Origin: Solirubrobacterales bacterium | Lineage (GTDB): Bacteria > Actinomycetota > Thermoleophilia > Solirubrobacterales > Solirubrobacteraceae | Assembly (NCBI GenBank): GCA_019240115.1 | Contig: JAFAYV010000088.1 | Coordinates: 1-64,000 of the forward strand | Length of the DNA: 64,000 nucleotides | Direction of reading: 5' to 3' | Program-made: the position numbers and the translations under genes | Notes under the pieces: model-generated | Seen by the model: the letters and a program-made list of their open reading frames with translations, nothing else | The model's database searches: none | Told to the model about the DNA's origin: nothing | In this document: positions 27,891-31,062 of the stretch, in pieces | Position numbering within the stretch: position 1 is the first letter of the stretch | Layout: each line of letters opens with the position of its first letter

Positions 27891-28632
27891 TGCGCTTCTC
27901 GGCGAACGCGGTGGCGCCCTCGCGCGCGTCCTCGGAGTCGAACACCGGGTCCATGATCGGTTGCTGGCGCTCGAAGAACTCGGCGTCGGGCCAGTCGAGC
28001 GACTCGTTGAGGATGCGCTTGGACGCGGCGAGGCCCAGCGGCGCGTTCTCGGCGATCGTCGCCGCGAGCGCGAGGGCCGCGTCGAGCGCCCCGCCGGGCT
28101 CGGTGAGCCGGTTGACCATGCCGAGCTCGTAGGCGCGCTCGGCGAGGAGCGGCTCGCCGGTCAGCGCCATCTCCATCGCGATCGATCGCGGCAGCACCCG
28201 CGGCAGGCGCAGCAGCCCTCCGGCGGCGGCGACGAGCGAGCGCTTGACCTCGGGGATCGCCAGCCGGGTGCCCTCCGAGGCGACGATGAGATCGCAGGCG
28301 AGCACGATCTCGAGGCCGCCGGCCAACGCGAACCCCTCGACGGCGGCGATCAGCGGCTTGTCCGCCGAGCGCTCGGTGATCCCGGCGAAGCCGCGGCCCG
28401 GCACCCACGGGCGGGTGCCGGCGGCGAACGCCTTGAGGTCCATGCCGGCGGAGAACCCCTTGCCGGCGCCGTTCAGCACGCCGACGGCGAGTTCGCCGTC
28501 GCCGTCGAGCTCGTCGAGCGCGGCCGCGATGCCCTCGGCGACGGTGACGTCGACGGCGTTGCGCTGCTCGGGACGGTTGATGGTGATGACGAGCGTGCGG
28601 TCGCGGCGCTCGGTCAGAAGTGAATCGCTCAT
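27868..28632 (-). CDS. Enoyl-CoA hydratase/isomerase family protein
   Basis: A 254-residue crotonase-fold enzyme acting on acyl-CoA thioesters. The oxyanion-hole segments are GKGFSAGMDLKAF near residue 60 and AVEGFALAGGLEIVLACDLIVAS near 97, followed by AGGLLRLPRVLP near 138 and the typical LAERAYELGMVNRL. The pattern fits beta-oxidation-type hydratases; the acidic residues of the classical hydratase pair are not both evident, so an isomerase or hydrolase role is possible. It overlaps nucS by ATGA and is translated from the same mRNA. Its last codons lie in a tandem repeat. Confidence 0.9.
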   Translation of the reverse strand: MSDSLLTERRDRTLVITINRPEQRNAVDVTVAEGIAAALDELDGDGELAVGVLNGAGKGFSAGMDLKAFAAGTRPWVPGRGFAGITERSADKPLIAAVEGFALAGGLEIVLACDLIVASEGTRLAIPEVKRSLVAAAGGLLRLPRVLPRSIAMEMALTGEPLLAERAYELGMVNRLTEPGGALDAALALAATIAENAPLGLAASKRILNESLDWPDAEFFERQQPIMDPVFDSEDAREGATAFAEKRTPVWKGR

Positions 28633-29321
28633 GCCGCGAACAATCTCAGATCCGGCTCGCGCTCACCCCGCAGGACCGCCAGGTCGATGTCGACGCAGGC
28701 GATCCCACGCGCCCCGGCGAGCACGCGGGCCTGGGGCTTGATCACCTGCGCGGCGAGCACGCCGCGGCAGTCGCCGAGCTCGGGGTCGAGCTGGATGCGC
28801 TGCAGGTAGCGGGTCAGCTGCTCGACCGCCTCGATTCCGGCGACCCGCTTGATCTCGACCGCGATCCAGCACCCGGCCGCGTCGCGGCACATGAGGTCAA
28901 CGGGACCGATGTCGGTCGCCCACTCGCGGCGCACGAGGCGAAAGCCCTCGCCGCACCAGTGCGGCTGCTCGGCGAGCAGCTCCTGGAGATGGGTCTCGAC
29001 CCCGTCCTTGCTGAGCGCGTGGCCGGCGTCGGGGAGGTCGACGGGCGCCATCTCATGCGTCACGTCGGAGAGGACCTCGTGCAGCGCGATGTCGAGCCGA
29101 TCATCGCCCGAGCGCTTGCGCACGAGGAGCCGGCCGGGCTCCTCCTCGATCACCGTCGGCGGGGTCATCCAGTTCAGCGGCTTGACACTCTGGCTGCCGT
29201 GGTCGGACCAGACCATGAACGTGCCGTCGGCCTTGAGCATCAGCAGCCGCGTCGCCTCGGCGAGATGGGTGGTCAGGCGACCGGAGTAGTCGATCGAGCA
29301 GCGGGCGACCATCAGGCGCAT
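28629..29321 (-). CDS. nucS: Mismatch-specific endonuclease NucS/EndoMS
   Basis: A 230-residue NucS. This enzyme cuts both strands at mismatches and provides the MutSL-independent mismatch repair typical of Actinomycetota and archaea. The N-terminal DNA-binding half contains CSIDYSGRLTTHL near residue 8 and LKADGTFMVWSDHGSQSVKPLNW near 30-52. The C-terminal nuclease has the catalytic series ATDIGPVDLMCRD near 137, then AVEIKRV near 155 and QLTRYLQRI near 169. There is no C-terminal beta-clamp motif beyond PDLRLFAA. TAGGCT lies 9 nt upstream of the ATG. It leads a two-gene operon. Confidence 0.95.
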   Translation of the reverse strand: MRLMVARCSIDYSGRLTTHLAEATRLLMLKADGTFMVWSDHGSQSVKPLNWMTPPTVIEEEPGRLLVRKRSGDDRLDIALHEVLSDVTHEMAPVDLPDAGHALSKDGVETHLQELLAEQPHWCGEGFRLVRREWATDIGPVDLMCRDAAGCWIAVEIKRVAGIEAVEQLTRYLQRIQLDPELGDCRGVLAAQVIKPQARVLAGARGIACVDIDLAVLRGEREPDLRLFAA

Positions 29322-29395: not shown

Positions 29396-29401
29396 TATGA
29401 T
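29396..29401 (+). promoter_or_regulatory. -10 box of the GroES-like gene
   Basis: TATGAT, the best -10 match in the window, ends 8 nt before ATG 29410. No TTGACA-like -35 is visible at 17-18 nt. Confidence 0.6.
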
Positions 29402-29409
29402 CGCCCGAG

Positions 29410-29799
29410 ATGCGCAACCAGCTGCGGCCCCTCTTCGATCGGATCGTCATCAAGGAGCTCGATCCCGACCGGGTTCGCCGTTCGGGCCTGCTCGTGCCCG
29501 CCGGCTCCGACGAGCCACCGCCGCAGCAGGGGATCGTGCTCGCCGTCGGACCGGGGCTCGACTGGTGGGACCACGTCGGAGTGCGGATGCCCGTCAACCC
29601 CGGCGACCACGTCGTCTTTCCCGCCTCGGCCGGCGCCTGGGTCGAGATCGACGAGGAGCGGCTGCTCGTCTGCCGCGTCGGCGAGCTGCTCGGCGTGCTC
29701 GAGCAGATCGAGCACTGTCCCGCCTGCCAGGGTCGCGAGCTCGCCGCCGGCGAGTCGTGCCCGGTGTGCGGGAACGAGGGCTCGGTCGCGAACCCCTGA
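29410..29799 (+). CDS. GroES-fold protein with C-terminal zinc ribbon
   Basis: A 129-residue protein. Residues 1-97 follow the GroES fold: LRPLFDRIVIKEL at the start, RRSGLLVPAGSDEPPPQQGIVLAVGPG across the mobile loop, and NPGDHVVFPASAGAWVEIDEERLLVCRVGELLGVL at the end. Residues 102-124 add HCPACQG...SCPVCGN, two CPxC pairs that form a zinc ribbon not found in ordinary GroES. No groEL is nearby. It may be a specialised co-chaperonin or an unrelated protein using the fold. It is convergent, 9 nt away, with a J-domain/TPR gene. Confidence 0.85.
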   Translation: MRNQLRPLFDRIVIKELDPDRVRRSGLLVPAGSDEPPPQQGIVLAVGPGLDWWDHVGVRMPVNPGDHVVFPASAGAWVEIDEERLLVCRVGELLGVLEQIEHCPACQGRELAAGESCPVCGNEGSVANP

Positions 29800-29808
29800 G
29801 CGACGTCC

Positions 29809-31062
29809 TCAGGCCGCCGAGCGCTCGGCAAGCCCCCGCGGGGTCGCCGCCGCGACGCGCGCGAGCAGGTCGCAGACCTCCTCGTCGCCTCCGAGCGCGA
29901 GCGCCCGATGGCAGGCCCGCTCGCACTCGGCAAGCCGGTCGGTGCGCGCGAGGGCGTGCGCGTAGGTCGACCAGGCGCGGCGCGACTCGGAGTCGATCCG
30001 CGTCGCGGCCTCGGCGCTCGAGACCTCGGCGCCGACGTCGCCGGCGAGGTGGTAGGCGAGCGCGAGGTCGAGCAGGCCATCAAGCGACGGGCCGGCGAGT
30101 CGCGCCCGCTCGAGCGCCGAGATGGCGCCCTCGCGGTCCATCAGCCGCAGCCGCAACCGTCCCAACCGCTCCCACGCCGAGGCGTCGGCGGGCGCGCGGT
30201 CGGCGGCTCGCTGCGCGGCGTCGGCCGCCAGGTCGATCGCCCCCATGTCCTCGTAGATCCGAGAGGCGTAGCGCTCGGGCGTCGGGCGGTCGGTCTCGAC
30301 CCGCGCCCAGTCGCGCACGCTGCGCCCGGCGGCCGGCAGGTTGCCCGCCTGCCAGAAGGCGGCGGTCAGCAGCCGCAGCACCGCCGGATTGTCGGGCTCG
30401 GTGTCGCGCGCGTAGACGAGCCGCTGGGCCGCGAGCTCGGCGTCGCCCTCGGCGAGCGCGTGCTGCGCCGCGGTCATGAAGCGCTGGACGCGGTCGGCGG
30501 CCGGATCGGGCTGCGAGAAGTCGACGAACTGCAGCGACCCGGCGGGGATCGTGCGCACGCCGACCTGGAAGCGGACCCGCGCCCACTGCTGCGAGTCCTC
30601 CTCGTCGCCGGAGAAGTAGATGCCGGTCACGGTGCCGACGCCCCATTCGGGATAGGAGACGCAGCGGGCGTAGCGGTGGACGACCGAGTGGTCGGGGACG
30701 CGGGCGCCGAACGGATCGTGCTTGGCGCGGTCCTCGGCGGCGGCACGCGCGCGCTGCTCGTTCTCGTAGGCGCGGCGGCCGGCGTCCTCGCGGGCGCGCC
30801 GGGTGGCGGCGGCCGACGCGCGGACCGCGCTCGCGCTGACGCTGCCGCCCCTCGAGGACTCGGCGAGGCGCTCGAGCTCGTCGGCGGCCTCGTTGATCGC
30901 CTGCAGATGGCGCTGATGCTCGTGACGGCGCCCCGGCGGGGCGATGTCGGGATGCCAGCGTTTGGCCATGCGCCGGCGGGCCAGCTGCACCGCGCGCTGG
31001 TCGAAGGGCGGCTCCAGCTCGAGCAGCAGGAGCGAGGATTCGACGTCGAGGATGCGCGGCAT
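29809..31062 (-). CDS. J-domain-like TPR protein
   Basis: A 417-residue protein. The N-terminal 70 residues look like a J-domain: helices around the HPD tripeptide in AKRWHPDIAPPG near residue 38. Next come a charged Ala/Arg helix (about 80-115) and a small beta domain (SYPEWGVGTVTGIYFSGDEEDSQ near 133), which resembles a Tudor/KOW-type module. The C-terminal 220 residues are TPR-like helical pairs. The HPD motif suggests stimulation of a DnaK-type ATPase. The start is supported by TAACGT 9 nt upstream of ATG 31062. Its neighbour is a GroES-fold protein. Confidence 0.8.
   Translation of the reverse strand: MPRILDVESSLLLLELEPPFDQRAVQLARRRMAKRWHPDIAPPGRRHEHQRHLQAINEAADELERLAESSRGGSVSASAVRASAAATRRAREDAGRRAYENEQRARAAAEDRAKHDPFGARVPDHSVVHRYARCVSYPEWGVGTVTGIYFSGDEEDSQQWARVRFQVGVRTIPAGSLQFVDFSQPDPAADRVQRFMTAAQHALAEGDAELAAQRLVYARDTEPDNPAVLRLLTAAFWQAGNLPAAGRSVRDWARVETDRPTPERYASRIYEDMGAIDLAADAAQRAADRAPADASAWERLGRLRLRLMDREGAISALERARLAGPSLDGLLDLALAYHLAGDVGAEVSSAEAATRIDSESRRAWSTYAHALARTDRLAECERACHRALALGGDEEVCDLLARVAAATPRGLAERSAA

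What the first reader, a model, noticed from the sequence alone, without database searches (positions are those of the whole stretch)
29410..29799. GroES-fold protein ending in a zinc ribbon, facing a J-domain/TPR protein
Two CPxC pairs after a GroES-like domain are not part of ordinary co-chaperonins. A J-domain/TPR gene is only 9 nt away. This may be a dedicated co-chaperone unit for metal- or nucleic-acid-binding clients, or a GroES fold recruited for something else.
Basis: partly seen in the sequence, partly recalled or inferred. Interest (0 to 1): 0.65.

Follow-up and report, generated by a model that had tools for sequence, protein, structure and literature searches.

The report
Second chaperonin lid with zinc tail
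Soil bacteria of one order (Solirubrobacterales) carry, besides their normal GroES, a second and very different GroES-like chaperonin lid with its own promoter, which in about a quarter of them ends in a small four-cysteine zinc-ribbon-like tail and of which one phage carries a copy; the neighbouring J-domain/TPR gene appears to be there by accident.

Summary
In detail: window 29410-29799 (+) encodes a 129-aa Cpn10/GroES-fold protein (Pfam 6.8e-17; predicted fold Z 11-13 to solved GroES) ending in CPAC-x10-CPVC, 9 nt from a convergent J-domain/TPR gene. It is not the cell's GroES, which lies beside groEL on another contig. It belongs to an order-wide paralogue subfamily: 63 of 103 sampled genomes of the order, nothing comparable elsewhere in the phylum. 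Core identity is about 80%, against about 36% to canonical GroES of the same genomes. Diagnostic features: a GroEL-docking-type mobile loop (SGL-x-V-P), an invariant Asp-Trp-Trp at the dome roof, and a stand-alone leaderless-type promoter (TANNNT 11-15 nt before the start in 74 of 103 genes, 1.9 expected). The ribbon is all-or-none (30 of 108 distinct genes), always five residues after the core: one origin, repeated loss. The J/TPR neighbour is adjacent only within one genus, occurs without the paralogue and is missing where the ribbon persists, so a 'co-chaperone unit' is not supported. A tailed-phage contig carries a 58%-identical copy and no detected GroEL. Best reading: an alternative lid for the housekeeping GroEL; the ribbon is a dispensable accessory, perhaps a metal or redox element. 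GroEL binding and zinc are untested.

The parts
29410..29799 (+). GroES-paralogue gene, 129 aa (P0001)
   Evidence: ORF and translation; Cpn10 61.7 bits; orthologues with intact frames
29422..29697 (+). Cpn10/GroES domain (residues 5-96)
   Evidence: Pfam, PDB sequence hits all GroES/Cpn10, predicted fold matches GroES Z 10.7-13.4 and T4 gp31 Z about 9
29482..29499 (+). Mobile-loop GroEL-contact-type motif SGLLVP (residues 25-30)
   Evidence: S25, G26, L27 invariant and V29, P30 near-invariant in 40 paralogues; aligns with SG(I/L)VLP of canonical GroES of the same genomes; pLDDT under 50 at residues 24-28, as expected of a flexible loop
29560..29568 (+). Asp-Trp-Trp (residues 51-53) at the dome-roof position
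   Evidence: Invariant in 40 paralogues, kept in the phage copy, replaced by other, mostly acidic/Gly turn sequences in canonical GroES; helix 51-55 in the model
29716..29769 (+). Zinc-ribbon-like Cys tetrad C103-x2-C106-x10-C117-x2-C120
   Evidence: Present in 30 of 108 distinct relatives, fixed attachment and spacing; modelled at pLDDT about 80; zinc itself not shown
29396..29401 (+). TATGAT -10-type element, 14 nt upstream of the start codon (leaderless-type promoter)
   Evidence: TANNNT starts 11-15 nt upstream in 74 of 103 distinct upstream regions against 1.9 expected by shuffling
29809..31062 (-). Convergent neighbour: J-domain (HPD) + TPR protein, 417 aa; judged NOT part of a unit
   Evidence: distribution independent of the paralogue
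28629..29321 (-). Divergent neighbour: NucS endonuclease; not part of the system
   Evidence: NCBIfam 285.7 bits; next to the paralogue only in the window's genus

Best explanation
An alternative co-chaperonin (a second GroES-type lid) specific to Solirubrobacterales. It would assemble as a heptameric dome, dock on the housekeeping GroEL through its kept mobile loop, and give a folding chamber with a different, tryptophan-lined ceiling for a subset of clients. It is expressed from its own leaderless-type promoter, independently of groES-groEL. The four-Cys ribbon on a short linker after the last strand is an ancestral accessory lost several times; most likely it binds zinc on the outside of the lid as a stabiliser, adaptor or redox/metal-sensitive element, and is not needed for the core function. 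Shown: subfamily, predicted fold, conservation, promoter signal, ribbon pattern, independence from the J/TPR gene, phage copy. Inferred: GroEL binding, heptamer, clients, zinc.
For: GroES fold. GroEL-contact-type motif SG(L)xVP invariant. Core conserved almost as strongly as canonical GroES itself in the same 21 genomes (79.7% against 83.3% mean pairwise identity) while only 36.5% alike to it, so it is under strong selection for a different job. 60 of 63 genomes keep canonical GroES as well. Most paralogue genomes show one GroEL (44 of 63; 7 of 9 single-contig genomes), so a shared GroEL is the available partner. Own promoter signal. A tailed-phage contig (terminase, portal, major head protein, tape measure) carries a copy with the same type of loop and the DWW roof, with no GroEL found on the contig, as T4 carries gp31 to use host GroEL (PMC6318259). 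Precedent for two GroES lids with one GroEL: Bdellovibrio GroES2 (PMC3464611).
Against: No binding data. The gene was not seen beside groEL in the loci read. The first half of its mobile loop is basic (DRVRR) where canonical GroES has EEEETTA. 40 of 103 genomes of the order lack it. The window's own genome has two GroELs, and two-GroEL genomes are somewhat commoner among carriers (18 of 63 against 5 of 40, p = 0.09). In a cyanobacterium a duplicated GroES was reported not to interact detectably with its own GroEL (PMC5381637).
Confidence: 0.6

Rival explanations
1. It is a regulatory subunit that co-assembles with canonical GroES into mixed heptamers (like chloroplast Cpn20/Cpn10 mixtures), tuning the lid and not forming one of its own.
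For: Both genes are kept together in 60 of 63 genomes; the paralogue aligns over the whole Cpn10 fold, including the end strands that pair between subunits in GroES. Cpn20/Cpn11-type chains appear among the PDB matches (7ekq).
Against: Only about 36% identity to the co-resident GroES, separate promoter signal, and a phage copy.
Confidence: 0.15
2. GroES fold recruited for a role without GroEL (for example a scaffold, nucleic-acid or metal-handling protein).
For: Gene is an orphan away from groEL; the roof and the first half of the loop differ from canonical GroES; small four-Cys tails are common in nucleic-acid-binding and redox proteins.
Against: The GroEL-contact-type motif is invariant over an order and kept in the phage copy; the ribbon is missing from most orthologues.
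Confidence: 0.2
3. A metallochaperone lid like Helicobacter HspA: the tail stores or delivers a metal.
For: Same architecture, GroES domain plus a metal-binding-type C-terminal tail; HspA's tail sequesters nickel and serves hydrogenase maturation (PMC4671568).
Against: The tail is a fixed four-Cys ribbon, not a His/Cys-rich sink; it is absent from about 70% of orthologues; no neighbour recurs across genera.
Confidence: 0.1
4. Dedicated co-chaperone unit with the adjacent J-domain/TPR protein.
For: 9 nt apart here; convergent adjacency recurs through the window's genus.
Against: Outside the genus not adjacent; J/TPR gene present without the paralogue (G011, G087, G107, G115, G127) and absent where paralogue and ribbon are present (G103, G118, G005, G029, G172); convergent genes cannot share a promoter.
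Confidence: 0.03

Closest known systems
Canonical GroES/Cpn10 (PF00166)
   Same: Fold, mobile loop with SG-hydrophobic-P motif, length of core, conserved Gly/Asp framework
   Different: About 36% identity to the GroES of the same genome; D-W-W roof; FPASAG-W in place of YSKYGGTE; not beside groEL; optional four-Cys tail
Bdellovibrio bacteriovorus GroES2 (Bd3349)
   Same: Second, orphan, diverged GroES in a genome with a groES-groEL operon; proposed alternative lid (PMC3464611)
   Different: Single organism; no ribbon reported there; not compared by sequence here
Bacteriophage T4 gp31
   Same: Alternative lid for host GroEL; structural match to the model (Z about 9); a phage copy exists for this subfamily too
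   Different: gp31 lacks roof loops (PMC6318259) whereas this subfamily keeps a rebuilt, aromatic roof segment; the host carries it chromosomally
Helicobacter pylori HspA
   Same: GroES with a C-terminal metal-binding-type extension (PMC4671568)
   Different: HspA is the sole GroES and its tail is His/Cys-rich; here the tail is a C-x2-C-x10-C-x2-C ribbon on an extra paralogue
M. tuberculosis Ruc (Rv0991c) / Hsp33
   Same: Chaperone-associated four-Cys zinc sites used as redox switches (PMC7448276): a lead for the ribbon
   Different: No GroES domain; no homology tested or claimed

Membership tests
Cpn10/GroES family (PF00166) | Sequence profile match over the full domain | tested here: met
   61.7 bits against 21.1 cut-off, positions 2-92 of 93
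Cpn10/GroES family (PF00166) | GroES beta-barrel fold | tested here: met
   AlphaFold model pLDDT 82.6; Foldseek and VIA hits to solved GroES, Z up to 13.4, well above other folds
Cpn10/GroES family (PF00166) | Mobile loop with hydrophobic GroEL-contact tripeptide | tested here: met
   S-G-L-[LVI]-V-P conserved; low-confidence flexible segment 24-28
Cpn10/GroES family (PF00166) | Heptameric ring that binds GroEL with nucleotide | not testable with these tools
   Needs biochemistry
Canonical groES (operon partner of groEL) | Lies with groEL and is the housekeeping copy | tested here: not met
   Canonical copy is beside groEL on contig C91; this one is on C81; below all NCBIfam GroES cut-offs
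Helicobacter HspA-type GroES | His/Cys-rich metal-sequestering tail on the sole GroES | tested here: not met
   Four-Cys ribbon without a His cluster, on a second GroES
Zinc ribbon | Two CxxC knuckles with conserved spacing | tested here: met
   C-x2-C-x10-C-x2-C in 28 of 30 ribbon-bearing genes
Zinc ribbon | Match to a curated zinc-ribbon family above cut-off | tested here: not met
   Only sub-threshold hits (TackOD1, Zn_ribbon_TFIIB); therefore called ribbon-like, not a member of a named ribbon family
Zinc ribbon | Bound zinc | not testable with these tools
   Needs metal analysis
Phage gp31-type co-chaperonin | No roof loop in the dome | tested here: inconclusive
   The segment is present and contains D-W-W, modelled as a short helix; ring not modelled
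Co-chaperone unit with J/TPR gene | Conserved synteny or co-occurrence | tested here: not met
   Adjacent only in one genus; independent distribution

The most novel reading that the evidence does not exclude
A whole bacterial order runs its GroEL with two lids: the ordinary GroES and a second lid with a tryptophan ceiling and, ancestrally, a ring of seven zinc ribbons that could act as a redox or metal switch, for a separate client set; a phage has taken the second lid for its own proteins.
Probability: 0.3. Interest if true: 0.7.

Novelty: new variant of a known kind. Interest (0 to 1): 0.45.

Why it matters
Alternative GroEL lids are known mainly from T4-like phages and, as a proposal, from Bdellovibrio. 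An order-wide chromosomal second lid with its own promoter, a distinct roof and an optional zinc-ribbon-like tail gives a natural test of whether the lid helps choose chaperonin clients, and a set of ribbon-bearing and ribbon-less orthologues for testing what the tail does.

Tried and rejected
Partner is the second GroEL: rejected as a rule, since most carriers show a single GroEL (p = 0.09 for association). J/TPR unit: rejected by distribution. Functional link with NucS, enoyl-CoA hydratase or UPF0047 neighbours: genus-local synteny only; no neighbour recurs across genera. Recurrent independent gain of the ribbon: disfavoured because attachment point and spacing are fixed and ribbon-less genes in the window's genus end in DAPV-stop where relatives read DCPxC, the stop falling on the second Cys codon. 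HrcA control: no CIRCE-type inverted repeat found in the window or in the five canonical loci looked at. First structure prediction with paralogues only was poor (pLDDT 56.6); adding canonical GroES rows fixed it. The core tree is short (93 columns) and poorly resolved, so the nine counted changes of ribbon state are a rough figure.

Full report
What is there. Window 29410-29799 (+) is an intact 129-codon gene. Its first 97 residues are a Cpn10/GroES domain (PF00166, 61.7 bits). The tail holds C103-PA-C106-x10-C117-PV-C120, a zinc-ribbon-like pattern that no curated ribbon family matches above its cut-off. It ends 9 nt from a convergent 417-aa protein with a weak but HPD-bearing J domain and TPRs. 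The divergent neighbour is NucS.

It is a second GroES. The window's genome has a canonical GroES next to a GroEL on contig C91 and a second, stand-alone GroEL on C57. In 299 genomes of the class the query finds two sharply separated sets: matches of 64-86% identity, E below 1e-40, in 63 of the 103 genomes of the same order and in none of the others, and matches of about 29-41%, which are canonical GroES. A profile search over 396 genomes of the phylum shows the same gap (1e-58 or better against 1e-21). Named genomes with it are Conexibacter, Solirubrobacter, Patulibacter, Svornostia, Paraconexibacter and Thermoleophilaceae MAGs, that is, Solirubrobacterales. 60 of the 63 also have the canonical copy. 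Counts by order and by GroEL number were made by hand from the tables.

Constraint. In 21 genomes where both copies were fetched, mean pairwise identity is 79.7% for the paralogue, 83.3% for canonical GroES, and 36.5% between the two in one genome. So the paralogue is held nearly as tightly as GroES but in a different state. Invariant positions include S25-G26-L27 of the mobile loop, with V29-P30 nearly so, matching the SG(I/L)VLP segment of the canonical copies, and D51-W52-W53 at the position of the dome roof. A model built with canonical rows in the alignment (pLDDT 82.6) matches solved GroES at Z 10.7-13.4 and T4 gp31 at about 9; the mobile loop is the least confident stretch. The ring itself was not modelled, so 'roof' rests on the alignment and on established knowledge of the GroES dome.

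Ribbon. Among 108 distinct genes, 30 have exactly four tail Cys as two CxxC, 77 have none, one has a single Cys. The first Cys always follows the core by five residues, spacing is 10 in 28 of 30, the second knuckle is CPVCGR in nearly all, and both Cys codons are in use at each site. Ribbon-bearing genes lie in three families of the order. On the poorly resolved core tree the state changes at least nine times. In ribbon-less members of the window's genus the tail ends ...DAPV-stop where relatives read ...DCPxC, with TGA at the second Cys codon. One origin and repeated loss explains this best; the ribbon is conserved where kept but dispensable.

Promoter. In 103 distinct upstream regions a TANNNT element starts 11-15 nt before the start codon in 74, against 1.9 expected from shuffles; several more have it at 16-17. 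In the window it is TATGAT at 29396-29401. This spacing fits leaderless transcription and a gene that stands alone.

Neighbours. The J/TPR gene follows the paralogue in the window's genus with or without the ribbon. It occurs in many genomes of two families, including ones without the paralogue, is absent from the f2 and f3 genomes that carry paralogue and ribbon, and lies megabases away in complete genomes such as G198 and G017. No other neighbour recurs across genera. The proposed co-chaperone unit is not supported.

Phage copy. A 141,737-base IMG/VR contig encodes a 116-aa relative, 58% identical over residues 1-97, with SGLVLP, DWW and GDHVVFPA. The contig holds a terminase large subunit, portal, head maturation protease, major head protein and a 2057-aa tape measure, plus RecT and an exonuclease, so it is a tailed phage. 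No GroEL was found on it; the record may be a fragment. Only one such contig was found. Phage carriage of a lid without its own GroEL parallels T4 gp31, which uses host GroEL (PMC6318259).

Interpretation. The best-supported mechanism is an alternative lid for the housekeeping GroEL with a changed ceiling, expressed on its own schedule; two lids with one GroEL have been proposed for Bdellovibrio (PMC3464611). The ribbon resembles in position the metal-binding tail of Helicobacter HspA (PMC4671568) but differs in type. Zinc-thiol sites act as redox switches in other chaperones (PMC7448276), which is a lead only. GroEL binding, oligomeric state, zinc and clients are not shown. No paper in the searched library describes this subfamily; that library is partial.

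Noticed in passing
L210:3001-3348 (IMGVR_UViG_3300044692_000034): A tailed phage carries a GroES of the Solirubrobacterales-specific subfamily without the ribbon and with no GroEL detected; probably a phage of this order.
   Followed up: yes
L217 2041-3864 (same phage contig): Phage-encoded TROVE/Ro60-type protein with a vWA domain; the contig also has a class II-like ribonucleotide reductase and two tRNAs.
   Followed up: no
L159 (CAMCVN010000010.1) and L140 (CAJCHW010000068.1): Records titled Bifidobacterium breve and Chlamydiae bacterium carry the Solirubrobacterales-only paralogue and group with Solirubrobacterales in the tree; they look mislabelled or contaminated.
   Followed up: partly
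window 29809-31062 (-): J-domain/TPR protein conserved at about 55-84% identity across two families of the order; between J domain and TPRs lies an unassigned segment (SYPEWGVGTVTGIYFSGDEED...).
   Followed up: partly
G000 contig C57:73846-75342 (L067): Second, stand-alone GroEL in the window's genome, with a lower profile score than the operon copy.
   Followed up: no
window 29396-29401: Leaderless-type TANNNT element before the paralogue start, conserved across the order.
   Followed up: yes
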